From: Dysidea avara
Lineage: Eukaryota > Porifera > Demospongiae > Dictyoceratida > Dysideidae
Length of the DNA stretch: 64,000 nucleotides
NCBI RefSeq assembly: GCF_963678975.1
Contig: NC_089273.1
Location: forward strand, 7,192,614-7,256,613
Direction of reading: 5' to 3'
This document shows, in pieces, positions 6,356 to 61,016 of the stretch (its first letter is position 1; every line of letters begins with the position of its first letter). The position numbers and the translations under genes are program-made. Under the pieces are notes generated by a model that had not been told where the DNA came from, did not search any database, and saw only the letters and a list, made by a program, of their open reading frames with translations.

Positions 6356-6479
6356 ATATACGAAATCCATTGTAAGTGATGATTGCACTCCGGATTGGTG
6401 TGCACTGCTGGAGTCTGACACCAATCAATATATTAAATGAATTTAGTAAGCCTAAGTCAAATACGCTCAAAATTTTGCC

Positions 6480-6760
6480 CAAAATGCTTTCAGGAATTTC
6501 CTAAAAGTTTTGTCTATAATGCTCTTCAGTGTTCCCATTTTGCTTGTATTATGCTCCTAGCAATTCTTGACCAGCTAATGCTCTAATAGAGTACTTCAGT
6601 AAAATAAATGTTCTATTACAGAGTATCAATCTAAAGAGCTACAATGCATTTGAGTGCTCTATTGCAGTTCTAGTGACTGTTCTATTAGGGAGTGCTCATG
6701 GAAATAAGCTCTGTAGTTTGAAATATCCACCTAATAAGCTAGCATTATGCTATTCGCATA
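6480..6760. repeat. Degenerate box-rich repeat (M4-like)
   Basis: It contains several diverged copies of the CTCTATTAGAG box (near 6580, 6610, 6655, 6680) beside phrases such as ATTATGCTCC that also occur at 54.3-54.6, 59.2-59.4 and 60.2-61.0 kb. Boundaries are uncertain. Confidence 0.45.
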
Positions 6761-6833
6761 TTTGATGCAGGCTTATAATGTGGTATAGTGTAGTTAACAA
6801 CTATACTTACAGTAACTAGATTATCATAATTAT

Positions 6834-7080
6834 GAGACTGGGCCTGCAAAAATAAGGCATGTGGGCACATGATTTTTGCCTACTTTTTCAAAGTTTCATC
6901 ACTCGTAACTTTTTGACCATAATGCTATGGCAATGCAATTTCAGCTTATAGTAGGCATTTAATTGGCTTTAGGATGCAAGTTACAGAATGCAAATATTCT
7001 GTTCCAGTACTGAGATATGATCTGTAAAGTGACAGGGTGTAGTTTGTGCCCACATGCCCTATTTTCGCAGGCCCAGTCAC
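6834..7080 (-). mobile_element. M1 MITE, 247 bp
   Basis: Reverse-oriented copy of the M1 family. The GGGCCTGC..GGGCATGTGGGCAC left end and GTGCCCACATGCCC..GGCCCAGTCAC right end form the inverted repeat. The target duplication is imperfect (TTAT / ATAT). Confidence 0.75.
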
Positions 7081-9773
7081 ATATTGAAATTCACGATGTC
7101 AGGATCATTTTTACACATCACATTTCAACCTTGTTACAATATGGCTGAGACATTCTCAAAGTCAGCAACTTACACTGTTATGTAGACTCAACAGTTTGTA
7201 CAAGGAGATAATACTATAAAAGCTTTAATTAAATTACCATTCTTCAAAACACTAAAGAGAAATCCTTTCAAGCTGTCATGCACTTGTTTGATACCGTAGC
7301 TACACTTGTTTGATAAAATCCATAATTTAATTAGCTAAACACTGATTAAGTAATGATACTACATTGTTCTCAAATAATCTAATCTGACAAAGTAGAATAA
7401 TGGTATCTAGAATAACGCAGGATGTGCAACATCTGATTGGTTACCTTAAAACTTAATCACTCTGTGCCTCCTTCTGTCATGAAATAATGCATTCTCGTCA
7501 TCTATAATCAAATATTTAAAATTTGGTGCAGGTACCTAAAAATTGATGCGAGCAGTGACAGGAAACAAGGAATTTAATAATGATGGCCATATATTGTGAT
7601 ATAAGCCTAGGTAAAGCAAAATGCACCCAAGATGTCATTGTATACTGTAATATTTTTTGATAAAATAGCTTGCAATGTTGTATGCTAGTCATGTACCATG
7701 TTGTATTGTACTTGTAGTACATCTGTGCTACAAGTGTCGTCAGTGTAAATACATAACTAAGTAATGAGTTGTGTATTGCAATAATTATTATCGTATCACA
7801 ATAGGTTGAGTGCAATAGTTGTGATAAGAAAGTATCCTACGTATATTGCACACCACTAGTGAACACCTTTTACTATAGCTTGTTTCCCATCACCCAATGG
7901 AACAAAAACTGATGCGAGTGGGAGTTTTGATTATTAATTATACACTTGACTATTGTTATTTCAGTCTCTGACTGCTTTTTTAAAGTATCTCGATCTTGAA
8001 GGCTGCCATGCAGGACTGTACCACCCATCCACCTTGTTGAATAAGAGTGAAGACACTTCCACCCTTCTGCTATGTTTATATGCACAGCTAATGCATTTAA
8101 AAACTGATTGTACAATAGTCAAACATTCTTAGACCATTTCACAATAAAATGAGTGCTGAAGTATGTTGTGAGTGCAATGTCATATTACAGAGGCTAGTCA
8201 CTTGATAATCTTAAGTCAAATTATGTGTACCATTGTAATGAGGTTTGACCGTAAGCAAAAGTTATGGCTAATTATAAGGACTTACAAATTAGTTCTGAAA
8301 TAATTGAACCCTACATCTTAGTTACATGTGCACTTATTCTATAGTTGTACTGACATACATAGTCATAACACAGGATTCTACAGTAGCCTGAAGCTTTGTG
8401 TAGTTGCAGCTTTAAACAAAGTGAGACACTACTCCAGAACCTATATTATGTATATAAGAGGGTAGACCTTTGAGTTTGAAATCTAATTAATTTAGACTAT
8501 GATGCCACTTGTTGTACCTTGACAGCTGTAATTTTAGTCTGCAATTCAGTACAACCTTTAGTATTATTGTAAATGCCCAAATGCTTTGCCAATGTTACAG
8601 GTATGCTGCTTTGCATCAAATCAGAGCATACAGGAGATGAGTGTGACACTATGACATAATATACAGACTAAGTTTTCATCCAACCAAATATCAGTATCAA
8701 ACTTGGTAAAGTTTAATATTGGTATTGTATGTAGTTGGATAGCTTAATGACCATAACTTGTATCATGACCATATAATACAATGGTGTAGCTAAACAGAGA
8801 CATGTGTCTGATGAAGCAAAGATAATTTTACTAGCTGTTGTAAAAAAGATAATAGACTTCAAAGTATAAATATTACTCCAACTGAAAAATTATGCTACAA
8901 GCATTATTTTCCAGTGGGTGCCATTACTTCTTTGAAGTGTTTTGTCTAACAACAGCTTGACAACAAAAGTGTACATGTAGTACCAAGCACATGTTAGAAG
9001 TAATTCTTATACTTATTAAAACTACTAAGTCGTAGATAGTCTACTACATCCATCTTAAATGGCTGGATAAAATTTTAAACTCAGAATGTAGTGAGAAGTT
9101 ATGATGTCACAAATGGCATAACAACTTTAACATAATAAACATTATAAGGTAGATTGATTTGTTACTACAATAAAATGGTTGTCCGCTACTGCAAGAAAGT
9201 TCATAGTTGTCCATTTTCAGTGGAAATGGTATACACAAAGGCCTAATGGGAGTACAGTATCTGTCCATTAGAGATAGGTAAATTAATGTATAATGCCCTA
9301 TCCTTTAAGACAGCTCCACTGTATACATGTACGAGTACAAGCTGCTCAGATATGTACATGTTAACTAACAACACATCAAGTTTATATGGATCTTATCAAA
9401 GATACATGCAATGTGATTTTAATTCACTGAGAATGGCCACCTGTTAAGTATTCAGTGTATACCTTTGCATCACATCGGTGCTACCCACAATGAAATTGTT
9501 GTTAGTGAAGTACATCTGAATGATGCTATCATGTGGAAAAATTACTACCACAAAATCTACTACAATTGTATGTAATGTAATGAGTCAATACTATAAGCTT
9601 GCTATATGTGTTGTGTAGCTAAGTGATTATGTACTGTGACCATATGTGAGAGTATAAATTGAACGGACCAACAGTAAGATGTTCAATGCAATTAGCTACT
9701 GTAATCCCCATAAGTACACTATTGGTAACATTGCATTATAACTAACATTACCATACAAGGAAGCACAGAGCAG
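7081..9773. other. Gene-free stretch
   Basis: 2.7 kb of AT-rich DNA with no supported gene. A box-like phrase (AGTATCTCGATCTT) occurs near 7982. No other recognised repeat is seen. Confidence 0.45.
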
Positions 9774-11073: not shown

Positions 11074-11401
11074 ATCTAATCCAAAACAGCCAAGTTGTAA
11101 AAAAAGAGTGCGGCCCTGAGAAAGGCTATGGTGAAAAAAGATGTGAAATCCAAGGTGGCAGCCAAGAAATGGCTGTGATGGTAGGTTAATGGTAAAAATT
11201 TTAATAACGACAAGTCAGGTGAATTTTGTGCCAAGACCAAGCGACACCAAATTCACCTGAATTGTTGTTATTAAAATTTTTACCATTAACCTACCATCAC
11301 AGCCATTTCTTGGCTGCCACCTTGGATTTCACATCTTTTTTCACCATAGCCTTTCTCAGGGCCTCACTCTTTTTTTACAGCTTGGCTGTTTTGGATTAGA
11401 T
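11074..11401. repeat. Fold-back palindrome of E2-A, 328 bp
   Basis: Two arms of about 145-150 bp are near-perfect inverted copies. They begin ATCTAATCCAAAACAGCC, end GGCTGTTTTGGATTAGAT, and are separated by a short loop near 11222-11245. The DNA or its RNA can form a long hairpin. Related palindromes lie at 36795, 44554, 30222, 16452 and 25012. Confidence 0.9.
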
Positions 11402-11504
11402 TTCACTTCTTTTTGTATTTGTATACCCCAAAGCCGGCCTATGGCCGGCTTTAGGGCTTTTTAACCTGTCATTTTTTCTTTACTACAGGAAGAAGAAAAG
11501 ATGA

Positions 11505-14388
11505 AGCAGGGTGATTTCTTTGTAGCTAACCTCTCTGCAAAATGGTCCTTCTAGCTGATCGCTCTACCGGATGACTTGTTTGTAGCTGAACTCTCTACAG
11601 GGTGATTTGTTTGTAGCTGAACTCTCTACATGGTAGTTTCTTTGTAGCTGAACTCTCTACAATGTGACTTCTTCTAACTGAACTCTCTACAGGATGACTT
11701 GTTTCTAGCTGATCTCTCTACAGTGTAACTTGTTTCTAGCTGAACTCTCTACAGGGTGACTTGTTTGTAGTTGAACACTCTACAGGGTGATTTGTTTGTC
11801 TCTACAGGGCAATTTGTTTGTTTGCAGCTGAACTCTCTACATGGTAGTTTCTTTGTAGCTGAACTCTCTACAATGTAACTTCTTCTAGCTGAACTCTCTA
11901 CAGGGTGATTTGTTTGTAGCTGAACTCTCTACAAGGTAACTTCTTCTATCTGATCTTTCTACAGGGTGATTTGTTTGTAGCTGAATTCTCTACAGGGCAA
12001 TTTGTTTGCAGTTGAACTCTGTACATGGTAATTTCTTTGTAGCTGAACTCTCTACAATGTAACTTCTTCTAGCTGAACTCTCTACAGGGTGACTTGTTTC
12101 TAGCTGATCTCTCTACAATGTAACTTCTTCTAGCTGAACTCTCTACGGGTGACTTGTTTCTAGCTGATCTCTCTACAGGGTGACTTGTTTCTAGCTGATC
12201 TTTCTACAGGGTGATTTGTTTGTAGCTGAATTCTCTACAGGGCAATTTGTTTGCTGCTGAACTCTCTACATGGTAGTTTCTTTGTAGCTGAACTCTCTAC
12301 AATGTAACTTCTTCTAGCTGAACTCTCTACATGGTGACTTGTTTCTAGCTGATCTCTCTACAGGGTGACTTGTTTCTAGCTGAACTCTCTACAGGGTGAT
12401 TTGTTTGTAGCTGAACTCTCTACAAGGTAACTTCTTCTAGCTGATCTTTCTACAGGGTGATTTGTTTGTAGCTGAATTCTCTATAGGGCGATTTGTTTGC
12501 AGCTGAACTCTCTACATGGTAGTTTCTTTGTAACTGAACTCTCTACAATGTAACTTCTTCTAGCTGAACTCTCTACAGGGTGATTTGTTTGTAGCTGAAC
12601 TCTCTACAAGGTAATTTCTTCTAGCTGATCTTTCTACAAGGTGATTTGTCTGTAGCTGAATTCTCTACAGGGCAATTTATTTGCAGCTGAACTCTCTACA
12701 TGGTAGTTTCTTTGTAACTGAACTCTCTGCAATGTAACTTCTTCTAGCTGAACTCTCTACAGGGTGATTTGTTTGTAACTGAACTCTCTACAATGTATCT
12801 TCTTCTAGCTGAACTCTCTACAGGGTGATTTGTTTGTAGCTGAACTCTCTACAAGGTAACTTCTTCTAGCTGATCTTTCTACAAGGTGATTTGTCTGTAG
12901 CTGAATTCTCTACAGGGCAATTTATTTGCAGCTGAACTCTCTACATGGTAGTTTCTTTGCAGCTGAACTCTCTACAATGTAACTTCTTCTAGCTGAACTC
13001 TCTACGGGTGACTTGTTTCTAGCTGATCTCTCTACAGGGTGACTTGTTTCTAGCTGAACTCTCTACAGGGTGATTTGTTTGTAGCTGAACTCTCTACAAG
13101 GTAACTTCTTCTATCTGATCTTTCTACAGGGTGATTTGCTTGTAGCTGAATTCTCTACAGGGCAATTTGTTTGCAGTTGAACTCTGTACATGGTAATTTC
13201 TTTGTAGCTGAACTCTCTACAATGTAACTTCTTCTAGCTGAACTCTCTACAGGGTGACTTGTTTCTAGCTGATCTCTCTACAATGTAACTTCTTCTAGCT
13301 GAACTCTCTACAGGGTGACTTGTTTCTAGCTGAACCCTCAACAGGGTGATTTGTTTGTAGCTGAACTCTCTACAAGGTAACTTCTTCTAGCTGATCTTTC
13401 TACAAGGTGATTTGTCTGTAGCTAAATTCTCTACAGGGCAATTTGTTTGCTGCTGAACTCTCTACGTGGTAGTTTCTTTGTAGCTGAACTCTCTACAATG
13501 TAACTTCTTCTAGCTGAACTCTCTACGGGTGACTTGTTTCTAGCTGATCTCTCTACAGGGTGACTTGTTTCTAGCTGAACTCTCTACAGGGTGATTTGTT
13601 TGTAGCTGAACTCTCTACAAGGTAACTTCTTCTAGCTGATCTTTCTACAGGGTGATTTGTTTGTGGCTGAATTCTCTACAGGGCGATTTGTTTGCAGCTA
13701 AATTCTCTACATGGTAGTTTCTTTGTAACTGAACTCTCTACAATGTAACTTCTTCTAGCTGAACTCTCTACAGGATGACTTGTTTCTAGCTGATCTCTGT
13801 ACAGGGTGACTTGTTCCTAGCTGAACTCTCTACAGGTGATTTGTTTGCAGCTGAACTCTCTTACATGGTGGTTTCTTTGTATCTGAACTCTCTACAAAGT
13901 GACTTCTTCTAGCTGATCTATCTACAGGATGACTTGTTTCTAACTGAACTCTCTACAGTGTGATCTGTTCATAGCGGAACTTTCTGCTGGGTGATTTGTT
14001 TGCAGCTAAACTCTTTGTATGATTGTTTCTTCGTAACTAAACTCTCTACAAGGTAACTTCTTGTAGTTGATCTCTCTACAGGATGACTTGTTTCTAACTG
14101 AACTCTCTACAGTGTGATCTGTTCATAGCGGAACTTTCTACTGGGTGATTTGTTTGTAGCTAAACTCTTTGCATGATTGTTTCTTTGTAATTGAACTCTC
14201 TACAAGGTAACTTCTTCTAGCTGATCTCTCTACAGGGCAATTTGTTTGTAGCTAAATTCTCTACAGGGGAGCTGAACTCTCTACATGATGGCTTCTTTGT
14301 AGCTGAACTCTCTATTAGGTACCTTCTTCTAGCTGATCTGACTACAGGATGACTTGTTTGTAGCTGAATTCCCTACAGAATAACTTGC
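11505..14388 (+). repeat. 30-31-bp minisatellite with higher-order structure, array 1
   Basis: About 90 units of the type TAGCTGAACTCTCTACA followed by one of several variable tails (GGGTGATTTGTTTG, TGGTAGTTTCTTTG, ATGTAACTTCTTC, AGGTAACTTCTTC). The variants follow a repeated order of roughly six units, i.e. a higher-order repeat near 185 bp. The last units decay towards E1. It is not a CRISPR array: the units are contiguous with no unique spacers. Confidence 0.95.
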
Positions 14389-14439
14389 AATGTAATATAA
14401 CTGAGTAAATTATACATGCAGCTGAATGCTTTATTAGGG

Positions 14440-15264
14440 TGACTGTTCTATTAGAGTATCTCGATCTCGCATTTGCTGCACGTAGTTGCCTTTCGAATCA
14501 TAACTCAGTGATTTGTAATGCGATTCTTCTGTACTACTGCAAGAACTTTCTATGATGATTATTGCAGCTACATACTGATTTTCAACTCGTTGCTCTAATC
14601 GGTTTGCCTGGTAGACACGAAAACTAATACTATAGTTTTTTTATTCATAAAAATCGATCGCGTAATTTTGACACAGGTTGGGTTTTGTGTCATATCTCCA
14701 TGGTCTTTATCCCGATTCCTTTCAAACCACAAAAAGGCACTCCTACGATGGTTGCTCCATCTACATATCAATTTTCAACTGATTCCTCCTAGGGGTTTAC
14801 CCTGTAGGCGTGACAGACCTTCGACCTTATTTTACGCAAATAATCGGTCATAACTCCGTGAATGTTCATCGGATTCCTACCAAAGTTGGTACGGAGATCC
14901 GCCTTAATGAGCCCTTTAAGTGTGCCAAATTTCAGCCCAATCCGAGCACGCATTCGTGTTTTATGGCGAATTTTGCGAAGTGTGCGAAATGAAGAAGATG
15001 AAGAAGAAGAAGAAAAAAACGAAGAAATTAAAACGAAATTTTGTTCGCTCGTATCTCGGAAATGACTGGAGCGATTTTCTTCAAATTTGGTATGTAGATT
15101 CCCCTAACTGGGCGGCACGTCTCTAGCAAATTTGGTTCCAATCGGATAAGGAATCACAGAGCTACATAGGTGTGAAAATTGCGTTTTCTTTCTTCCTGTT
15201 AATATACTCACGGTGTGGCGCGCCGGCTTCTTGGGCCGCACGACACACTATCGTGTGTCTTGAT
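14440..15264 (+). mobile_element. E1 module of E2-A
   Basis: It starts exactly at the shared box (TGACTG.TCTATTAGAGTAT then CTCGATCT) and ends with CGGCTTCTTGGGCCGCACGA and the GACACAC/GTGTGTC hairpin. The interior has TAGGCGTGAC phrases and an A-rich GAAGAAGAAG tract near 14990-15030. Short open frames here are fragmentary and not conserved between copies, so I do not call a gene. Confidence 0.75.
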
Positions 15265-16451: not shown

Positions 16452-16646
16452 AATGAAATCAAAGATGGTGGCCAAGAAATGGCTGCAATGATGTTAAATT
16501 TTAACAATACACACAGCCATTATTAATTTTCTTAGCATTAACATCATTGCAGCCATTTCTTGGCCACCATCTGTGATTCCACAACTTTTTTCACCTGGGT
16601 TTTAAGGCCACACCATTTTTTCACAGCTTGGCTGTTTTTGTGTGGA
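16452..16646. repeat. Fold-back element, partial (E2-palindrome family)
   Basis: Inverted arms around GGTGGCCAAGAAATGGCTGC and its complement, with the AATGATGTTAA variant also seen at 30222-30493. The distal part of the left arm is missing. The right arm retains the CACAGCTTGGCTGTTTT end. Confidence 0.75.
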
Positions 16647-16867
16647 TCACTGCTACCATCACCTCTTCTGTTTGTTCAAATTCTGCATGTAGTCTTGAGG
16701 TTTACTATGAACAATAAACAAACTATGGTTAAACAATGGGTATGAATTAGAATTTTAAAACTGGGTCTGATCCTTTACTGTAAGGAAAAGTGATAGTATC
16801 AGTAAGCCGATGAATACTGGTGAGTATAATGCCTTTTGGATTAGCTAATAGCTACTATCTCGTTGCC

Positions 16868-24369: not shown

Positions 24370-25011
24370 TGTGCAGTATCACCATGCCCCATAAGCCTAC
24401 AGCTTTTACTGCATTTGGCGGCGGAAAAACATGGTAGTGACAGCTGGAGCTGAGCAATGTAACAACTGGCTTACTTGTCTTGCTACAACTTGGTAATGTT
24501 CCACCTGCCTCAAACTACACTGTAGCAACATAGAAACATGAAATATTAAACCTTTCACTCTGCTAGACTCAGTAGACTGGTTTTATGGCCTTCTCAAAAA
24601 GTATCGATAGGCATTCAAAAATTTGAATGATGCCCATGACTATACCGTAACCTTAAGCTCCATTGAGTAACAGAACAATTAAAAATGTTTCCTACATTTG
24701 TCTACACAATGTTTTTCAATGCATTTTACTAGAAATAGCAAATTATACTTAGACAGTCACGTAAATTTCATACACACCACTAAAATTATTTTACAATTAT
24801 GTTAGTGGTAGCTACAGTGTATTTAAATTATTTGTGTTATGTAATTTCATAGTGTCATCAAAAGTAGAGTTGCAGAAACAGCTGAGCTATAAGCACAGAC
24901 ACTTGGAGAAAGGTTTGTTTTATAGTTACTGTATATTCATTTTACCAACTTTTCTGTAGTATGCATAACATAAGTTTGATCAATTATTTGCAAAGATATA
25001 ATATTATCTAT
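24370..25011. other. Gene-free stretch
   Basis: No supported gene or element seen. Confidence 0.4.
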
Positions 25012-25195
25012 ACCACAACAACCAAGCTGTAAAAACAGGATGCAGCTCCAAGAATCCAGGTTGAAAAATGTTGTGAATTCAAAGGTGGTGAACAGAAAAT
25101 GGTTGTGATGGTGTATATACAGGAATTAACATCACTGCAAGTATTTCTCAGTCACCACCCTTGATTTCATGACTTTTTTACTCTGAGGACTGCTA
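25012..25195. repeat. Fold-back element, short diverged copy
   Basis: The left arm begins CCACAACAACCAAGCTG and carries AATTCAAAGGTGGTGAACAG; the right arm has TCACCACCCTTGATTTCATG. It is the most diverged member of the palindrome family seen at 11074, 30222 and 36795. Confidence 0.6.
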
Positions 25196-30221: not shown

Positions 30222-30493
30222 TCCACACAAAAACAGACAAGCCAGGGGAAAATGCTGCAGCCTTAAAAAGCCTGGGTGAATAAAAGTTGTGAAATCAAAG
30301 GTGGTGGCTAAGAAATGGCTGCAATGATGTTAATACTGATAAATTTTAACAAGGCACAGCCATTATTAAAATTTATTAGCCTTAACATCATTGCAGCCAT
30401 TTCTTGGCCACCACCTTTGATTTCACAACTTTTTTCACCTAGGATTTTTAAGGCCACGCCATTTTTTCACAGCTTGAGTGTTTTTTGTTTGGA
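30222..30493. repeat. Fold-back element without minisatellite
   Basis: Arms CAAAGGTGGTGGCTAAGAAA / TTTCTTGGCCACCACCTTTG with outer ends ACAAAAACAGACAAGCC / AGCTTGAGTGTTTTTTG. It is followed to about 30590 by the E2-type linker (CCAAAACCAGCCTATGACTG, then TTTCTTCTTTTCTATACAG), but no tandem repeats follow. It may represent the ancestral form of the E2 5' end. Confidence 0.8.
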
Positions 30494-30801
30494 CTTCACT
30501 TCTTTTGTAGTTTATAAGGCTCCAAAACCAGCCTATGACTGACTTTTAGGTTTGTTTTTACTCACATTTCTTCTTTTCTATACAGATACAATAATGATTA
30601 TTGAATACAGACTTATAAATGTATTGTATTACATGATTTACTTCAATGTTGTTGTAATACTCTAATAGAGTGCACATTTTTGAGGACTTCTAATAGAGCA
30701 TACATAGAATGTTCTAGAACAATCTAGTACTTCTATTGGTAGATCTATGAAATTAAAAGTTCAAAATTATCATTTATAAAGCAGAAATTAAATGAGGTGC
30801 T

Positions 30802-30879
30802 AAGCCAAGATAGCAGTGGTTCAGTGGTTAATGATGCAGATGTTTGGTATGGAGGTCCCTGATTCAAATTCTGATAGGT
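30802..30879 (+). repeat. tRNA-like SINE head fragment
   Basis: Box A-like TAGCAGTGGTTCAGTGG and box B-like GATTCAAATTC are spaced about 35 bp apart, as in a tRNA-derived pol III promoter. The cloverleaf is degraded, so a functional tRNA is unlikely. It immediately precedes the diverged E1 at 30922. Confidence 0.4.
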
Positions 30880-30921
30880 TGTTTTTTTTCGACATTTTTT
30901 TGCACCATTTTTATCCCACTG

Positions 30922-31769
30922 TGACTGCTCTATTAGGGTATCTCGATACTGCAATTTTACGTACATTTGTTTGATTTTTGCTATATAACTTTGTAGCTGT
31001 AACTCTATTGCTATTCAAACTATCAAAAAGCACTGCTATGATGATCAGTGTATGTACACACCAATTTTCAAGTTATTCCTACGTATACTGAGTTTACCCT
31101 GTAGCCATGACAGAACTTTGCTCTTTGTATGTGAATAAACGCTCATACTATCTTGAATATTCACTGTATTCACAACAAACTTAGTACGTGACTTCACCTT
31201 TATACGCTCTTCATTTGTGTCAAAGATCGAGACAATCAAATTACACATTTTTGTTATATAGCAATTTTTGCAAAGTGTGCAAACATAAACCGAAGCCCCC
31301 ATAACCACCTAGCATAAGAAGAAAAAAACAAAGAAATTAAAATGAAATTTTGAAAGCCCATATCTTGCAAATGGCTGTTGCGAATTAAATCAAATTTTGC
31401 TGTGTGGCCCACCCTACCTGGCAGACAGCTACCGTAATTTACTTTTTTTCGTTGTAAAACTAATCTTCGTATGCAAAATTTGTACAAAAATTTCTTGCAC
31501 AAAAATTTTTATGCAAGATCAAACCACTCTAATAGAGCAGTCATTCATGTAAATCAGATGAAAATACTTTTACACAAAAATTTTTATCATGAAAAGCTTT
31601 TGCACGAAAATAAAGCGTATTACGGTATATTGCAAAAATGGTGTGCTTTGGAGAAGGGGCCGTAGTGCTATGCATGCGTAAAAAGCTGTTTTCTTTCTTC
31701 CTGTCAATATACTCACAGTGTTGGTACACAGGCTTTCTTGGCTGCACGACACACTGCCGTATGTCTTGA
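30922..31769 (+). mobile_element. E1 module, solo and diverged
   Basis: It starts with the shared box (TGACTGCTCTATTAGGGTAT) and ends with TTTCTTGGCTGCACGACACAC and TGTCTTGAT. Intermediate landmarks (TTTACCCTGTAGCCATGACAG, an A-rich GAAGAAAAAAAC tract, CATATCTTGCAAATGG, TTCTTTCTTCCTGTCAATAT) follow the order in E1 at 14440. A reversed second box lies inside at 31516-31543. No minisatellite or fold-back precedes it. Confidence 0.7.
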
Positions 31770-36794: not shown

Positions 36795-37115
36795 ATCTAA
36801 TCCAAAACAGCCAAGCTGTAAAAAAAGTGTGCGGCCCTCAGAAAGGCTATGGTGAAAAAAGATGTGAAATCCAAGGTGGCGGCCAAGAAATGGCTGTGAT
36901 GGTAGGTTAATGGTAAAAAATTTAATAATGACAATTCAGGTAAATTTTGTGAAGCGGCACAAAAATTCACCTGAATTGTTGTTATTAAAATTTTTACCAT
37001 TAACCTGCGATCACAGCCATTTCTTGGCCGCCACCTTGGATTTCACATCTTTTTTCACCATAGCCTTTTTGAGGGCCGCACACTTTTTTTACAGCTTGGC
37101 TGTTTTGGATTAGAT
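36795..37115. repeat. Fold-back palindrome of E2-B, 321 bp
   Basis: ATCTAATCCAAAACAGCC..GGCTGTTTTGGATTAGAT with near-perfect arms. The loop lies near 36948-36965. Confidence 0.9.
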
Positions 37116-37270
37116 TTCATTTCTTTTTGTATTTGTATACCCCAAAGCCGGCCCATAGGCCAGCTTTGGGACTTTTTTAACCTATGTTTTTTTTCTTTAC
37201 AACAGGAAGAAGAAAAGATGTAGATGTACTTTAAATATTTTATCAGTAAATGTACAAATTATATACATAT

Positions 37271-37373
37271 GTGACCGGATTTGCGAAAAGGGGCCTTCCA
37301 CACACATCCAATTTGCCAAATTTGACAATTGATAACTTCAGATTGGAAAGAGCTATTGCCTTGAAATTTGGGC
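37271..37373 (+). mobile_element. M2 MITE left half inside E2-B
   Basis: GTGACCGGATTTGCGAAAAG with CCTTCCACACACATCC and an ATAT left flank. It is cut off where the tandem array begins, so the array probably expanded over, or deleted, the right half. Confidence 0.65.
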
Positions 37374-37375
37374 TG

Positions 37376-38970
37376 TGGTGATTTCTTTGCAGCTGAACTC
37401 TCTACATGATGGTTTCTTTGTAGCTGAACTCTCTACAAGGTAATTTCTTCTAGCTGATCTCTCTACAGGGAGATTTGTTTGTAGCTGAATTCTGTACAGA
37501 TGATTTGTTTGCAGCTGAGCTCTTCACAGAATGGTTTCTTTGTAGCTGAACTCTCTAAAAGGTAACTTCTTCTAACTGATCTTTCTACAGGGCAATTTGT
37601 TTGCGGCTGAATTTTATACAGGGTGATTTCTTTGCAGCTGAACTCTCTACATGGTGGTTTCTTTTTACTGTAGCTGAACTATCTACAAGGTAATTTCTTC
37701 TAGCTGATCTCTCTACAGGGTGATTTGTTTGTAGCTGAATTCTGTACAGGTGATTTGTTTGCAGCTGAGCTCTTTACAGAATGGTTTCTTTGTAGCTGAA
37801 CTCTCTACAAGATAACTTTTCTAGCTGATGTCTCTAAAAGGTGACTAGTTTGTAGCTGAACTCTCTACATGGTGGTTTCTTTGTAACTGAACTTTCTACA
37901 AGGTGATTTCTTCTAGCTGATCTTTCTACAGGGTGATTTGTTTGTAGCTGAACTCTCTACAAGGTAACTTCTTCTAGCTGATCTCTCTACAGGGAGATTT
38001 GTTTGTAGCTGAACTCTCTACAGGTGATTTGTTTGAAGCTGAACTCTCTAAATGATGGTTTCTTTGTAGCTGAACTCTCTACAAGTTAACTTCTTCTAGC
38101 TGATCTCTCTACAGGGTGATTTGCTTGTAGCTGAACTATCTACAAGATAACTTCTTCTAGCTGATCTATCTACATGGTCATTTGTTTGTAGCTGAATTCT
38201 GTATAGGTGATTTGTTTGCAGCTGAGCTCATTAAATAATGGTTTCTTTGTAGCTGAACTCTCTCAAGGTAACTTCTTCTAGTTGATGTCTTTACAGGGTC
38301 ACTAGTTTGTAGCTGAATTCTCTACATGGTGGTTCCTTTGTAACTGAACTCTCTACAAGGTAACTTTTTCTAGCTCATCTTTCTACAGGGGGATTTGTTT
38401 GTAGCTGAATTCTGTTCAGGTGATTTGTTTGCAGCTGAGCTCTTTAAAGAATGGTTTCTTTGTAGTTGAACTCTCTACAAGGTAACTTCTTCTAGCTAAT
38501 GTATCTACAAGGTAACTGGTTTGTAGCTGAGCTCTCTACATGGTGGTTTCTTTATAACTGAACTCTCTACAAGGTGACCTCTTCTAGCTGATCTTTCTAC
38601 AGGGTGATTTGTTTGAAGCTGAACTCTCTACAAGGTAACTTCTTCTAGCTGATCTCTCTACAGGGAGATTTGTTTGTAGCTGAACTCTCTACATGATGGT
38701 TTCTTTGTAGCTGAACTCTCTGCAAGGTAACTTCTTCTATTGATCTCTCCACAGGGGGATTTGTTTGTAGCTGAACTCTTTACATGGTGGTTTCTTTGTA
38801 GCTGAACTCTACAAGGTGATTTTTTCTAGCTGAACTATCTCTTTCCATAGTTGCATGAACTCCCTACAAGGTAACTTCTTCTAGCTTATCTCTCTACAGG
38901 GTGACTTGTGTGTAGCTGATCTCTAAACAGGATTCTTATTTCTAGCTGATCTCTTGAATTCTCTTCAGGG
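37376..38970 (+). repeat. 30-31-bp minisatellite, array 2
   Basis: About 50 units of the array-1 type (TAGCTGAACTCTCTACA plus variable tail), shorter and more diverged at its 3' end near 38820-38970. Confidence 0.95.
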
Positions 38971-39810
38971 TGACTGCTCTATTAGGATGACTGCTCTATT
39001 AGAGTATCTCGATCTCGCACTTGCTGCACCAAGTTGGATTTCGTGTTATAACTCCGTTGCTTTACGTCTGATTCTTCTACACCATTGATGAGCCTTTCTA
39101 AGCTGATTACTCCATCTGTATAACGATTTTCAGAGCATTACCCCAAGCGGTTTATCTGGTAGGCGTGGCAAGCAGTCGTTTTTTTTATTAGCTAATCTCG
39201 ATTGCGTAATTGTTACACACTGTTGGTTTTTTCGTTGTATCTTCCTGTTTTGTAACTCGATTTCTTTCAACCCACAAAAGGTTTGAGGTTCAATAGTTAA
39301 CCTATTCACCCACCGATTTGCAGCTTCTTCCCATACGCGGTTTACCCTGTAGGCGTGACAACATATTGGTGTTATTTTCATGAATAATCGCTCATAACTC
39401 TTTGCCTGTTTATCGTATTCCAGCCAAAGTAGGTACCGAGATGCGCCTTTATATCCTTCTTCTGTGTGCCAAATTTCAAGGCAATCGAATATGGCGTTCG
39501 AGTTGTATAGCAGTTTTTGTAAGTGTGCGACAAGAAAAAGAAAAATAATAAGAAAAAAAAAAAAACGAAGAAACTTAGCCAATTATTGAAGTCGCATATC
39601 TCGGGAACGCTTGAAGCGATTTCGTTCAAATTTGGAATGTAGAGTACTGCAGTTGGAGGGCATGTCCACAGCAAAAATCGTCTTGTTTCATCAAGGAAGC
39701 ACAGAGCTACGGAGGTGCGAAATTTGCGTTTTCTTTCTTCCTGTCAATATACTCACGGATGTTACGCGCCGGCTTCTTGGGCCGTACGACACACTACCGT
39801 GTGTCTTGAT
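38971..39810 (+). mobile_element. E1 module of E2-B
   Basis: It starts with two tandem boxes (38971 and 38988), continues with CTCGCACTTGCTGCACC, and ends GCCGGCTTCTTGGGCCGTAC plus the GACACAC/GTGTGTC hairpin and TTGAT. Confidence 0.75.
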
Positions 39811-40395: not shown

Positions 40396-41353
40396 CTATG
40401 CATGTGTCAAATATGCCAGCATAATAAAATCATAAGTGGCAGCTGGAGTAGTATGTGAGCATAATGCTAGCATATTAGGTGGGTAATAAGCTTAATTCCA
40501 TGAAAACCAAGACACACGGTAGTGTGTCGTGCGGCCCAAGAAGCCGGCGTGTAACACCTGTGAGTATATTGACAGGAAGAAAGAAAACACAATTTTCGCA
40601 CCTCCATAGCTCTGTGCTGCCTTGATGAAACAAGACTATTTTTGCTGTGGACACTCCCTCCACCTTCAGCACTCCACATTCCAAATTAAAGCGAAATCGT
40701 TTCAAGCGTTCCCGAGATATGCGACTTCAACAATTGGCTTCGTTTCTTCGTTTTTTTTCTTCTTATTTTTCTTCCTCATTTCGTACACTTACAAAAACTG
40801 CTATAAAACGCGAACTCCATATCCGGTCGCCTTGGAATTTGGCACACAGAAGGGGGGTATAAAGGCGCATCTCTGTACCAACTTTGGCTGGAATACGATA
40901 GGCCGGCAAAGAGTTATTAGCGATTATTCACGAAAAATAACACCAATATGTTGTCACGCCTATAGGGTAAACCGCGTATGGGAAGAAGCTGAAAATCGGT
41001 GGGTGAATATAGGTTAACTATTGAACTTCAAACCTTTTGTGGTTTGAAAGAAATCGAGCTAAAAACCAGGAAGATACAATGAAAAAACCAACAGTGTGTA
41101 ACAATTACGCAATCGAGATTAGCTAATAAAAAACGACTGTTTGCCACGCCTACCAGGTAAACCTCTTGGGGTAATGCTTTGAAAATCGCTGTACAGATGG
41201 AGTTATCATCTTAGAAAGGATCTTCAATGGTGTAGAAGAATAAGACTTAAAGCCACGGAGTTATAACACGAAATCCAACTTGGTGTAGCAAGTGCGAGAT
41301 CGAGATACTCTAATAGAGCAGTCATCCTAATAGAGCAGTCAACCTAATAGAGC

Positions 41354-44350
41354 AGTCACCCTAAAGAGAATTCAAGAGATCAGCTAGAAACAAGTAACCT
41401 TTATAGAGATCTGCTACAAACAAGTCACCCTGTAGAGAGATCAACCACAAACAATTCACCCTGTAGAGTGATCAGCTAGAAGAAGTTACCTTGTAGGGAA
41501 TTCATGCAATATAGAGAGAGATAGTTCAGCTAGAAGAAATCACCTTGTAGAGTTCAGCTACAAAGAAACCACCATATAGAGAGTTTAGCTACAAACAAAT
41601 TGCCCTGTAGAGAGATGAGCTAGAAGAAGTTACCTTGTAGAGAGTTCAGCTACAAAGAAACCATCATGTAGAGAATTCAGCTGCAAACAAATCACCTGTA
41701 GAGAGTTCAGCTACAAACAAATCTCCCTGTAGAGAGATCAGCTAGGAGAAGTTTCCTTGTAGAGAGTTCAGCTACAAACAAATCACCTTGTAGAAAGCTC
41801 AGCTAGAAGAAGTCACCTTGTAGAGAGTTCAGTTACAAAGAAACCACGATGTAGAGAGTTCAGCTACAAACTAGTGACCTTGTGGCGACATCAGCTAGAA
41901 GAAGCTACCTTGTAGAGAGTTCAGCTACAAAGAAACCATTCTGTAAAGAGCTCAGTTGCAAACAAATCACCTGTACAGAATTCCACTACAATCAAATCAC
42001 CCTGTAGAAAGATCAGCTAGAAGAAGTTACCTTGTAGAGAGTTCAGTTACAAAGAAACCACCATGTAGAGAATTCATTTACAAACTAGTGACCCTGTAAA
42101 GACATCAGCTAGAAGAAGTTACCTTGTAAAGAGTTCAGCTACAAAGACACCATTCTGTAAAGAGCTCAGCTGCAAACAAATCACCCTGTAGAGAGATCAG
42201 CTAGAAGAAGTCACCTTGTAGAGAGTTCAGCTACAAAGAAACCACCATAATTATAGAGAGTTCAGCTGCAAACAAATCACCCTGTAAAACTATCAGCTAG
42301 AAGAAGTCACCTTGTAGAGAGTTCAGCTACAAAGAAACCACCAAGTAGGGAGTTCAGCTAAAAGAAGCTACCTTGTAGAGAGTTCAGCTACAAAGAAACC
42401 ATCATGAAGAGAGTTCAGCTGCAAACAAATGTCCCTGCGTGTAGAGAGTTCAGTTAGAAGAAGTTACCTTGTAGAGAGTTCAACTACAAAGAAACCATTC
42501 TGTAAAGAGCACAGCTGCAAACAAATCACCTGTACAGAGTTCAGCTACAAAGAAACCACCATGTAGGGAGTTCAGCTAGAAGAAATTACCTTGTAGAGAG
42601 TTCAGCTACAAAGAAACCATCATGAAGAAAGTTCAGCTGCAAACAAATGTCCCTGTAGAGAGTTCAGTTAGAAGAAGTTACCTTGTAGAGAGTTCAACTA
42701 CAAAGAAACCATTCTGTAAAGAGCTCAGCTGCAAACAAATCACCTATACAGAGTTCAGCTACAAAGAAACCACCATGTAGGGAGTTCAGCTAGAAGAAGT
42801 TACCTTGTAGAGAGTTCAGCTGCAAACAAATCACCCTGTAAAAAATTCAGCTACAAACAAATCACCCTGTAGAGAGATCAGCTAGAAGAAGTCACCTTGT
42901 AGAAAGTTCAGCTACAAAGAAACCACCATATAGAGAGTTCAGCTGCAAACAAATCACCCTGTAAAAAATTCAGCTACAAACAAATCACTCTGTAGAGAGA
43001 TCAACTAGAAGAAGTCACCTTGTAGAGAGTTCAGCTACAAAGAAACCACCATGTAGGAAGTTCAGCTAGAAGAAGTTACCTTGTAGAGAGTTCAGCTACA
43101 AAGAAACCATCATGAAGAGAGTTCAGCTGCAAACAAATCTACCTGTAGAGAGTTCAGTTAGAAGAAGTTACCTTGTAGAGAGTTCAGCTACAAAGAAACC
43201 ATCATGAAGAGAGTTCAGCTGCAAACAAATCTACCTGTAGAGAGTTCAGTTAGAAGACGTTACCTTGTAGAGAGTTCAGCTACAAAGAAACCATTCTGTA
43301 AAGAGCTCAGCTGCAAACAAATCACCTGTACAGAATTCAGCTACAAACAAATCACCCTGTAGAGAGATCAGCTAGAAGAAATTACCTTGTAGAGAGTTCA
43401 GCTACAAAGAAACCACCGTGTAGAGAGTTCAGCTGCAAAGAAATCACCCTGTAGAAAATTCTGCCACAAACTAATTGCCCTGTAGAAAGATCAGTTAGAA
43501 GAAGTTATCTTGTAGAGAGTTCAGCTACAAAGAAACCACCATGTAGAGAGTTCAGCTAGAAGAAATTACCTTGTAGAGAGTTCAGCTACAAAGAAACCAC
43601 CGTGTAGAGAGTTCAGCTGCAAAGAAATCACCCTGTAGAAAATTCTGCCACAAACTAATTGCCCTGTAGAAAGATCAGTTAGAAGAAGTTATCTTGTAGA
43701 GAGTTCAGCTACAAAGAAACCACCATGTAGAGAGTTCAGCTAGAAGAAATTACCTTGTAGAGAGTTCAGGTACAAAGAAACCATCATCTAGATAGTTTAG
43801 CTGCAAACAAATCACCTGTAGAGAGTTCAGCTACAAACAAATCTCCCTGTAGAGAGATCAGTTAGAAGAAGTTACCTTGTAGAGAGTTCAGCTACAAAGA
43901 AACCATTCTGTAAAGAGCGCAGCAGCAAAGAAATCACCTGTACACAATTCAGCTACAAACAAATCACACTGTGAAAAAAGAGGGATATAAGATGGTATTT
44001 CCAGTGAATACAAAAAGCTTGATATAATCTGTATTATACTAACAATCTCATGTAAGGCTTTAGTTAATGTGTTAAACATACTGAAACCATATATTTGATG
44101 GTATAGTGTGGGCATTATACTAGATATAAGCTATTTCAGGTAATGTGGTAAATAAACTGAAACCATATATGTAATAGTATAGCATGCATTATACTGAAGT
44201 ATAACATGAGTATAATACAGGGTTTATATTAAAGCTTATTTGTATTCAATAAGCCACTGGAAATACCATCTTATATCCCACCTTTTTCACAGTGTCACCC
44301 TGTAGAGAGAACAGCTAGAAGAAGTTACCTTGAAGAGTGTTCAGTTACAA
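41354..44350 (-). repeat. 30-31-bp minisatellite, array 3, interrupted by a MITE
   Basis: About 85 units, reverse complement of arrays 1 and 2, at 41354-43966 and 44295-44350. It includes a 184-bp six-unit block repeated in tandem almost without change (43371-43554, 43555-43738) and a four-unit ~123-bp block repeated near 43060-43250. Confidence 0.95.
43967..44294. mobile_element. CACTG-type MITE, 328 bp, inside array 3
   Basis: Inverted repeats of 40 bp with two mismatches (CACTGTGAAAAAAG and GATATAAGATGGTATTTCC). TCA is duplicated at 43964-43966 and 44295-44297. CACTG ends with a 3-bp duplication fit the CACTA/EnSpm-like group. The tandem array reads through cleanly when the element is removed. 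Confidence 0.85.
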
Positions 44351-44553
44351 AGAAACCACCATGGAAAGTTCTGTAATAAATATATGTATTATATATATAA
44401 TTTGTACATTTACTGATAAAATCTGAAATATTTAAGGTACATCTTCTTCATCTTTTCTTCTTCCTGTGGTAAAGAAAAAGGATAGGTTAAAAAGTCCCAA
44501 AGCCGGTATGGCCGGCTTTGGAGTTGGGGTATACAAATACAAAAAGAAGTGAA

Positions 44554-44883
44554 ATCTAATCCAAAACAGCCAAGTTGTAAAAAAAGTGTGCGGCCCTCAA
44601 AAAGGCTATGGTGAAAAAAGATGTGAAATCCAAGGTGGCAGCCAAGAAATGGCTGTGATGGTAGGTTAATGGTAAAAATTTAATAACGACAATTCAGGTG
44701 AATTTTGTGCCAATTGACCAAGCGGCACCAAAATTCACCTGAATTGGTGTTATTAAATTTTTTGCCATTAACCTACCATCACAGCCATTTCTTGGCCGCC
44801 ACCTTGGATTTCACATCTTTTTTCACCATAGCCTTTTTGAGGGCCGCACACTTTTTTTACAGCTTGGCTGTTTTGGATTAGAT
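44554..44883. repeat. Fold-back palindrome of E2-C, 330 bp
   Basis: ATCTAATCCAAAACAGCC..GGCTGTTTTGGATTAGAT with near-perfect arms and a loop near 44710-44735. Confidence 0.9.
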
Positions 44884-45154: not shown

Positions 45155-45220
45155 TTGACTCAGGCCTATGTGGCACACCGACTTTCTTTGCCGCATGACA
45201 CACTACTGTGTGTCTTGATT
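45155..45220 (+). mobile_element. E1 3' terminus, solo
   Basis: GACTTTCTTTGCCGCATGAC then ACACACTACTGTGTGTCTTGAT, the last ~60 bp of E1 only. Confidence 0.6.
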
Positions 45221-60191: not shown

Positions 60192-61016
60192 TCTAGACTA
60201 GGCATGAGGCTATTATGCTCCAAAAATTGTACATTATGCAGTACATTATGCAGTGCTAAAAAAATCACCTATTATGCTTTTGAGAATTGCCCATTATTCC
60301 CAAAATTATGCCACCATAATTGGCTAATAATGCCAATTTATTGCTGTATCACACCATTTTAATTGATGTTTGAGCTTCTAATAGTCTTGAATTCTTCAGC
60401 TGGTTGCTGTATTAGAGTATTTCGTATCAATGTGACTGCTTTATTACAGTAAATAACATTAATTTACTGTTCTATTAGAGTTTCTGACTGCTCTATTAGA
60501 GTACCATGATCTTTTTAACGGAATTGTGCAATCCAGGGGTGGATACAGGGGGAGGGGGATCAAAGGGGGCTCTTTATCCCCCTCCAAAAATTTTCAGTAT
60601 ACCAAGATCGAGATACTTTAATAGAGCAGTCACTCTAATAAAGCACTCACAGTAGTAGAACAGTGTGTAGTGAGCTATTTAAGGAGTTTTATGTACTTTA
60701 TCAACTATAAATACATGGTTGGTGGGGTGGGCAGCTATTGTTAGCTGGCTGTGACCTTTTTATTTATTTTTATTTTGGTCTCATCTTATCAAACCAGAGA
60801 CAATGTAGTGTGTAGTGCCTCAGTTTATTTTTGACCCCCCCCCCCCCCCCTCCCCCCCCTTTCTATAAGTCTGGATCCACCCCTGGTGCAATCTGCAAAT
60901 TTTCCTACTGTTAAAGCTTTACAATGACGTCAAAATGCTAGCATAATTCCTGATTCCCACACATACCTATTATGTCCGAAATTATGCCGGCATAATCGCC
61001 GCATCCCTACTCTAGA
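60192..61016. mobile_element. M4 inverted-repeat element, interrupted by hAT H4
   Basis: The ends TCTAGACTAGGCATGAGGC / GCCGCATCCCTACTCTAGA are imperfect inverted repeats that continue into ATTATGC phrases. It contains several boxes (60423-60512). Without the nested H4 it would be about 465 bp. The target duplication is unclear. Confidence 0.55.
60534..60885 (+). mobile_element. H4: hAT nonautonomous element, 352 bp
   Basis: CAGGGGTGGATACAGG / GGATCCACCCCTG ends with a perfect 8-bp duplication GTGCAATC (60526-60533, 60886-60893). It is closely related to H3 (22300), including the box at 60605-60632 and the ATGTACTTTATCAACTATAA segment. Confidence 0.9.

What the first reader, a model, noticed from the sequence alone, without database searches (positions are those of the whole stretch)
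11074..15264. E2: composite mobile element of fold-back, hairpin, minisatellite and hairpin-ended module
Three copies (11.07-15.26, 36.80-39.81, 40.51-44.88 kb) keep the same order of four very different parts. A 5' inverted repeat, a central tandem array and a 3' terminal hairpin (GACACAC..GTGTGTC, then TTGAT) is the layout of Helentron/DINE-1-type nonautonomous elements. The 320-330-bp perfect fold-back and the several-kb array are larger than usual there. If mobile, it spreads minisatellites through the genome.
Basis: partly seen in the sequence, partly recalled or inferred. Interest (0 to 1): 0.75.

Follow-up and report, generated by a model that had tools for sequence, protein, structure and literature searches.

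The report
Mobile element carrying its own minisatellite
A non-coding jumping element, present in thousands of copies, carries a long hairpin at one end, a short hairpin at the other and kilobases of tandem repeats between them, and seems to spread those repeats through an animal-like genome by a rolling-circle type of transposition.

Summary
All three window copies have the same order: a ~328-bp palindrome, a short hairpin, a 31-bp tandem array, and a ~0.87-kb module ending in GACACAC-N4-GTGTGTC. Genome-wide it behaves as one mobile unit. The 3' end occurs 9,201 times and the palindrome/hairpin junction 6,403 times (each <=1 mismatch; reversed-pattern controls 0). All 30 palindrome loci fetched by similarity lead into the array. 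Five of five longer regions, chosen because both ends had matched, are complete, as are three of three copies first scored as unlinked. The 5' flank ends in AT in 34 of 34 places and the 3' flank starts with AT in 20 of 20. One 4.1-kb copy has 40 paralogous empty sites (95-100% identity across the junction); the four read hold a single AT. So the whole composite, array included, inserts as one piece into AT. The ends have no terminal inverted repeats and fit a non-autonomous rolling-circle (Helitron-like) element, closest in layout to Helitron2. No Rep/helicase partner with these ends was found in the part I could read. Striking and abundant, but a variant of a known kind.

The parts
11075..15263 (+). 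E2 copy 1, whole element under the A^T model (T of TCTAATCC to A of CTTGA); AT at both flanks
11074..11401 (+). 5' terminal palindrome, two ~155-nt arms and a ~20-nt asymmetric loop (the outermost A-T pair is the host A and the T that follows the inner arm)
11108..11116 (+). 5' copy of a 9-nt asymmetric inverted repeat GTGCGGCCC, inside the 5' hairpin
   Evidence: 18 of 2000 shuffles reach 9 nt
11427..11457 (+). short GC-rich hairpin (CCCCAAAGCCGGCCTATGGCCGGCTTTAGGG)
   Evidence: DNA fold z = -5.8 for 11,402-11,470
11548..14387 (+). 31-bp minisatellite array with higher-order periods of 92, 123 and 245 bp (by eye its first, weaker unit starts near 11,512)
14388..15263 (+). 3' module E1 (~0.87 kb)
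   Evidence: best conserved in its last 75 nt (partly by selection of the rows)
15233..15241 (+). 3' copy of the 9-nt inverted repeat GGGCCGCAC, directly upstream of the 3' hairpin
15242..15259 (+). 3' terminal hairpin GACACAC-TATC-GTGTGTC, four nt from the end
36796..39809 (+). E2 copy 2 (3.0 kb)
40507..44882 (-). E2 copy 3 (4.4 kb), inserted into an older repeat whose diverged uninterrupted paralogue lies at ~6,447-6,751; AT at 5' flank, GT at 3' flank (probably a mutation)
30222..31769 (+). Diverged relative with palindrome, short hairpin and E1-like module but without the 31-bp array

Best explanation
E2 is a non-autonomous rolling-circle (Helitron-like) transposon. SHOWN: palindrome, short hairpin, minisatellite and 3' module move as one unit of about 3-6 kb into the dinucleotide AT; the element has no terminal inverted repeats, starts A|TCTAATCC and ends GTGTGTCTTGA|T. 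INFERRED: a Rep/helicase supplied in trans nicks the 5' end at A|TC, one strand is displaced through palindrome, array and E1, the GACACAC/GTGTGTC hairpin marks where replication stops, and the strand is joined into another AT; the 9-nt repeat shared by the 5' hairpin and the base of the 3' hairpin may pair to define the end, as proposed for Helitron2. The array is carried as cargo and changes length and sequence much faster than its flanks. The arms of the palindrome are kept alike by exchange or copying between them, or by selection for pairing.
For: Unit: 30 of 30 palindrome loci lead into the array at a fixed place (palindrome end and short hairpin were part of the query, the array was not); 5 of 5 longer regions are complete (chosen because both ends had matched); 3 of 3 extended 'unlinked' 3' ends are also complete; 19 of 20 such 3' ends carry E1 or its 3' part. 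Ends: AT at 34 of 34 5' flanks and 20 of 20 3' flanks. Empty sites: joined flanks of the L038 copy match 40 of 40 scored places at 95-100% across the junction, and the four read hold one AT. Two elements head to tail share a single AT in L036. Asymmetric ends with a 3' hairpin. The genome holds many Helitron Rep sequences: 230 first-look candidates, 150 scored and listed as matches over the Pfam cut-off, some being pieces of one gene. Cargo: the array 18-mer occurs 120,846 times, about 7,200 elements at 16.7 per element (range 6-33 in 11 copies), in line with 6,403-9,201 ends.
Against: No autonomous partner with these ends was found. Helitron family A2 ends in CTAG|T by comparison of copies, A1 by motif only, and no E2-type end lies in the parts read of families B, F and H; the apparent 5' boundary of G in its one locus is not E2-like. 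The 3' end is not CTRR and the hairpin lies 4 nt, not ~11 nt, from the end. A 2-bp AT duplication by another enzyme would look the same. The 9-nt repeat is lost in window copy 2 and is not the longest inverted match in the 30.2-kb relative. Only 1 of 7 joined flank pairs gave empty sites, since one repeat filled the 40 scored places.
Confidence: 0.75

Rival explanations
1. Cut-and-paste (or other) DNA transposon making a 2-bp AT target-site duplication, its palindromic 5' end being a fold-back.
For: A filled site with AT on both sides and an empty site with one AT is formally the same for A^T insertion and for a 2-bp duplication.
Against: No terminal inverted repeats between the two ends; the only long inverted repeat lies wholly at the 5' end. 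Two elements share one AT head to tail, though a duplication model allows that too. A terminal 3' hairpin is present.
Confidence: 0.12
2. Parvovirus-like rolling-hairpin replication, with the terminal palindrome self-priming and flipping each cycle.
For: The arms change together (20 of 153 pairs changed on both sides; 0 of 500 shuffles as many), and the loop occurs in both orientations: 27 forward, 5 reversed, 4 of 36 not used (3 not callable, 1 set aside).
Against: Orientation is far from 1:1 and the extent of the flipped block differs between copies (L016 versus L020), as expected from occasional recombination or conversion between arms. There is a terminal palindrome of this size at one end only.
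Confidence: 0.06
3. Canonical Helitron moved by the abundant family A Rep/helicase, which probably also uses AT.
For: 5'-TC start and AT target agree with canonical Helitrons; family A has many long open frames and ends CTAG|T after a hairpin.
Against: E2 ends CTTGA, not CTRR; hairpin position and sequence differ; no E2 homology found in the family A loci read.
Confidence: 0.1
4. No mobile unit: separate repeats (fold-back, satellite, E1) that cluster by chance or by nested insertion.
For: Palindromes without an array and 3' ends without E1 do exist (L044 and L092 first palindrome, L071, and window 45,217 and 56,754); 5 of 12 array clusters counted by hand on C1 have no exact 3' end nearby.
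Against: Fixed order and strand and precise empty sites for a whole unit.
Confidence: 0.01

Closest known systems
Helitron2 (Bao and Jurka 2013, PMC3627910; passages read)
   Same: Hairpins at both ends; 5' T; short inverted repeat whose 3' copy lies 20-30 bp from the end directly upstream of the 3' hairpin (here 23-31); non-autonomous members known.
   Different: 5' hairpin is ~330 bp rather than a short one; 5' repeat is 33 bp from the end rather than 0-2; target is AT, whereas the Chlamydomonas examples insert after TTTT; no partner protein identified here.
Non-autonomous Helentrons: HINE, DINE-1, oyster Cg_HINE (PMC4067079, PMC7492417; passages read)
   Same: Non-coding; central tandem array; 3' palindrome; spreads satellite-like repeats genome-wide; no longer target-site duplication.
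   Different: They insert at TT/T-rich sites and have 11-15-bp subterminal repeats; here AT, a 9-bp match and a very long 5' palindrome.
Canonical Helitron (Helitron1, Helraiser; PMC4778049, passages read)
   Same: 5'-TC, precise insertion between A and T, 3' hairpin.
   Different: No CTRR end; hairpin 4 nt rather than about 11 nt from the end; 5' palindrome.
Replitrons (Craig 2023, not read; described in PMC10741241, passages read)
   Same: HUH-type elements without TIRs; 2-8-bp duplications would allow AT.
   Different: They have 5-11-bp direct terminal repeats; none seen here by eye (not computed).

Membership tests
Canonical Helitron (Helitron1) | Insertion between A and T without further duplication | tested here: met
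   34 of 34 5' flanks, 20 of 20 3' flanks; empty sites with one AT. A 2-bp AT duplication is not distinguishable.
Canonical Helitron (Helitron1) | 5'-TC | tested here: met
   A|TCTAATCC
Canonical Helitron (Helitron1) | CTRR-3' end | tested here: not met
   GTGTGTCTTGA|T in 20 of 20; by contrast families A1 and A2 of this genome end CTAG|T
Canonical Helitron (Helitron1) | Hairpin about 11 nt upstream of the 3' end | tested here: not met
   Hairpin 4 nt from the end
Helentron / HINE / DINE-1 | Insertion at TT or T-rich target | tested here: not met
   AT in all flanks counted
Helentron / HINE / DINE-1 | Subterminal inverted repeats of 11-15 bp near both ends | tested here: inconclusive
   Only 9 bp; 18 and 12 of 2000 shuffles do as well for copies 1 and 3, absent in copy 2
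Helentron / HINE / DINE-1 | 3' palindrome and optional central tandem repeats | tested here: met
Helitron2 | Hairpins at both ends | tested here: met
Helitron2 | 3' asymmetric repeat directly upstream of the 3' hairpin | tested here: met
   GGGCCGCAC, 23-31 nt from the 3' end in copies 1 and 3; mutated in copy 2
Helitron2 | 5' asymmetric repeat 0-2 bp from the 5' end, inside the 5' hairpin | tested here: inconclusive
   Inside the hairpin but at nt 34-42
Helitron2 / any Helitron-like element | Autonomous Rep/helicase partner with the same ends | tested here: inconclusive
   Families A1, A2, F, G, H and part of B read around a few loci, no match; C, D and E not read
Any rolling-circle element | Single-strand or circle intermediates | not testable with these tools
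   Needs cells and a transposase

The most novel reading that the evidence does not exclude
E2 belongs to an unrecognised lineage of rolling-circle transposons that combines the AT target of canonical Helitrons with Helitron2-like double hairpins. Its 5' end has grown into a ~330-bp palindrome whose arms are kept alike by copying between them and whose loop flips. This lineage is the main generator of the genome's 31-bp minisatellite, turning a satellite-bearing element into about 6-8% of the genome by transposition rather than by local amplification.
Probability: 0.3. Interest if true: 0.7.

Novelty: new variant of a known kind. Interest (0 to 1): 0.5.

Why it matters
It is a clear natural case in which the copy number of an abundant minisatellite is matched by a transposon that carries it (about 7,200 element equivalents of array against 6,403-9,201 element ends). 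Because flanks that are 97-99.8% identical bound arrays of very different length, thousands of datable copies could be used to measure how fast tandem arrays change after insertion. The long palindrome, with paired changes in its arms and a loop found in both orientations, gives a similar natural record of palindrome repair.

Tried and rejected
Parts independent: rejected by fixed order and empty sites. On-the-spot empty site inside the window: the paralogue at 6,447-6,751 is much diverged, so it confirms the insertion but not the exact target. Family G Rep as partner: an E2-type array directly upstream of its ORF looked promising, but the sequence shows an E2 copy broken inside E1 by other DNA, i.e. 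nesting. A 24-nt piece like the palindrome arm lies downstream of the family H frame in L068 (E = 0.002) and weaker pieces in L094 and L095; I did not take these as ends. Family A as partner: ends differ. Rolling-hairpin replication: loop orientation 27 to 5, not equal. A count of the outer palindrome arm in the whole genome was asked for and never answered. My first hairpin scan of the Rep loci gave nothing useful.
Full report
The window lies in a 550.8-Mb eukaryote genome in 108 contigs, at C2:7,192,614-7,256,613.

Observation. The three copies are as described. Under an A^T model they span 11,075-15,263 (+), 36,796-39,809 (+) and 40,507-44,882 (-). Each starts TCTAATCCAAAACAGCC as the outer arm of a 320-330-nt palindrome. 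Then come a short GC-rich hairpin (fold z -5.8 and -5.2 in copies 1 and 2), a 31-bp tandem array, and the E1 module ending in GACACAC-N4-GTGTGTC-TTGA (in copy 3 the last A is G; fold z about -2.6 in copies 1 and 2).

Genome-wide abundance. The 3' end GGGCCGCACGACACACTAYYGTGTGTCTTGAT occurs 9,201 times with up to 1 mismatch and the inner-arm/hairpin junction 6,403 times; reversed-pattern controls give 0. The best 40 matches of each end query are 98-100% identical to copy 1 (2,675 and 1,668 first-look candidates, 40 scored each), so part of the family is young. The array 18-mer GTAGCTGAACTCTCTACA occurs 120,846 times; eleven copies hold 6-33 each, 16.7 on average (three of them, L091-L093, cut within E1 by the stretch fetched but with their arrays whole), giving about 7,200 element equivalents. 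With a mean size of about 4.6 kb this is roughly 33-42 Mb, 6-8% of the assembly. This is an estimate, since some ends are solo.

Do the parts travel together? All 30 palindrome loci fetched by similarity (L005-L034, the first 30 of 40 matches; L005 is window copy 1) lead into the array right after the short hairpin; palindrome end and short hairpin were in the query, the array was not. Three with short arrays also show E1 after it. Five longer regions (L035-L039), chosen because both ends had appeared in the top-40 lists, are complete. On C1 0-7.8 Mb, 20 of 37 exact 5' markers have an exact 3' end on the same strand 1.7-8.1 kb downstream, against 1 of 37 on the flipped strand, 2 of 37 on the wrong side, and a circular-shift mean of 2.2. 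In the other direction only 21 of 100 exact 3' ends had an exact 5' marker. I fetched 20 of the 73 unlinked ends of the commoner loop type: 19 of 20 carry E1 (16 over the whole slice, L075, L077 and L079 only its 3' part in the best alignments) and L071 only the last ~50 nt. Three of these were extended upstream and 3 of 3 proved complete, with diverged 5' parts that the exact marker had missed. By hand from the list, 7 of 12 array clusters (two or more hits, gaps up to 1.2 kb) on the + strand of C1 have an exact 3' end within 2 kb downstream; 5 of 12 have none.

Ends and target. The 5' flank ends in AT in 34 of 34 places, with T before it in 26 of 34. The 34 include the second element of L036, whose AT is shared with its neighbour, and one related palindrome in L031. 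The 3' flank begins with AT in 20 of 20 fetched ends, L035-L054. These were picked as best matches to a query that contained the AT, so the count leans that way; a diverged end in L006 was not counted. Of the window copies 2 of 3 have AT (copy 3 has GT), and the other diverged ends of this type in the window at 31,768, 45,217, 56,754 and 62,861 are also followed by AT, found with a pattern that did not include it (one more hit, at 60,794 with nine mismatches, is not end-like). Seven joined flank pairs were searched together. One of the seven, the L038 copy (4.1 kb), lies in a multi-copy repeat and fills all 40 scored places with matches across the junction at 95-100%. Four read in full show ...CCAAATATATTATATCACG... 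where the filled site reads ...ATATATTAT|CTAATCC...GTGTGTCTTG|ATATCACG. The other six pairs gave no match among the 40 scored, because this one repeat filled the list. Copy 3 of the window sits in an older repeat whose uninterrupted paralogue lies at 6,447-6,751, too diverged to fix the base. In L036 two elements stand head to tail and share one AT.

Evolution of the parts. Among L035-L039 the 5' part and E1 are 97-99.8% identical while the arrays differ in length (2.9-5.2 kb); the longest shared array blocks are about 90-93% identical in a search cut off at 90%. L035 and L037 share 2,851 bp colinear from the start, whereas L035 and L036, about equally close in their flanks, share only blocks out of register. 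Between copy 1's subfamily and that of copies 2 and 3 the 5' part is 93-95% identical but E1 only 77-79%; copies 2 and 3 are 92% alike in E1. Within E1 the last 75 nt are best conserved in ten sequences, but six of the ten had been chosen by an exact last 32 nt, so only the stretch 50-75 nt from the end is free of that choice. The palindrome arms change together: across 13 palindromes, 20 of 153 pairs show changes on both sides and 97.6% of cells stay paired; 0 of 500 shuffles reach this and slid versions give 2-6 pairs. That test cannot tell selection for pairing from copying of one arm onto the other. The loop occurs in both orientations, 27 forward and 5 reversed (L001, L007, L016, L020, window copy 3). 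Of 36 palindromes, three were not callable and one call (L036, second element) I set aside as spurious because that palindrome is a different, shorter one.

Mechanism. Asymmetric ends, AT target without further duplication, a 3' hairpin, head-to-tail neighbours and an abundant Helitron background (230 first-look candidates for Helitron_like_N, 150 scored and listed as matches over the cut-off, some of them pieces of one gene) point to rolling-circle transposition with the protein supplied in trans. The Helraiser work on the 3' hairpin as terminator (PMC4778049, passages) and the Helitron2 proposal that the two asymmetric repeats pair at the end of replication (PMC3627910, passages) supply the likely steps. 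Neither is shown here.

Partner search. Family names A-H are my own, by score bands. Family A (A1, L067) encodes OTU, Rep and Pif1 domains in one 1,613-aa frame. A2 ends CTAG|T after a hairpin, seen in three copies; A1 has such an end by motif only. These are canonical Helitron ends, unlike E2. Families F, G and H (Rep, Pif1 and OTU or UCH domains) and the part of B that was read show no E2 end (patterns allowing 3-6 substitutions); F and H may run on beyond the stretches read. C, D and E were not read.

Verdict. A very abundant, partly young non-autonomous rolling-circle-type element that carries a minisatellite, near Helitron2 and HINE in layout but with an AT target and an unusually long 5' palindrome. 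Satellite-carrying HINEs are known, so I call it a new variant of a known kind.

Noticed in passing
window ~43,970-44,290: An insert with inverted ends (TGTGAAAAA..GGGATATAAGATGGTATTTCCAGT) interrupts the array of copy 3; it looks like a MITE.
   Followed up: no
window 31,768; 45,217; 56,754; 62,861 (+): The same 3' terminal motif followed by AT occurs, more or less diverged, at the end of other sequences; at 45,217 and 56,754 the interior looks quite different, so other element families may use this 3' end.
   Followed up: partly
L069 1-545: An E2 copy appears broken inside E1 by a DNA segment that carries a 2,078-aa Rep/helicase frame (family G): a nested insertion.
   Followed up: partly
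L070 7,640-9,200 and L069 8,330-9,901: Helitron families F and G show long tandem arrays downstream of their Rep frames (by eye, outputs), so arrays inside rolling-circle elements may be common in this genome.
   Followed up: no
G000:C15 12.0-14.1 Mb: Several Rep matches of the lower-scoring families lie close together on the small contig C15.
   Followed up: no
window 16,454-16,654; 24,997-25,112; L044 680-1001; L092 762-1047; L031 2082-2430: Related palindromes that stand alone or beside E2, possibly solo hairpin elements of the same superfamily.
   Followed up: partly
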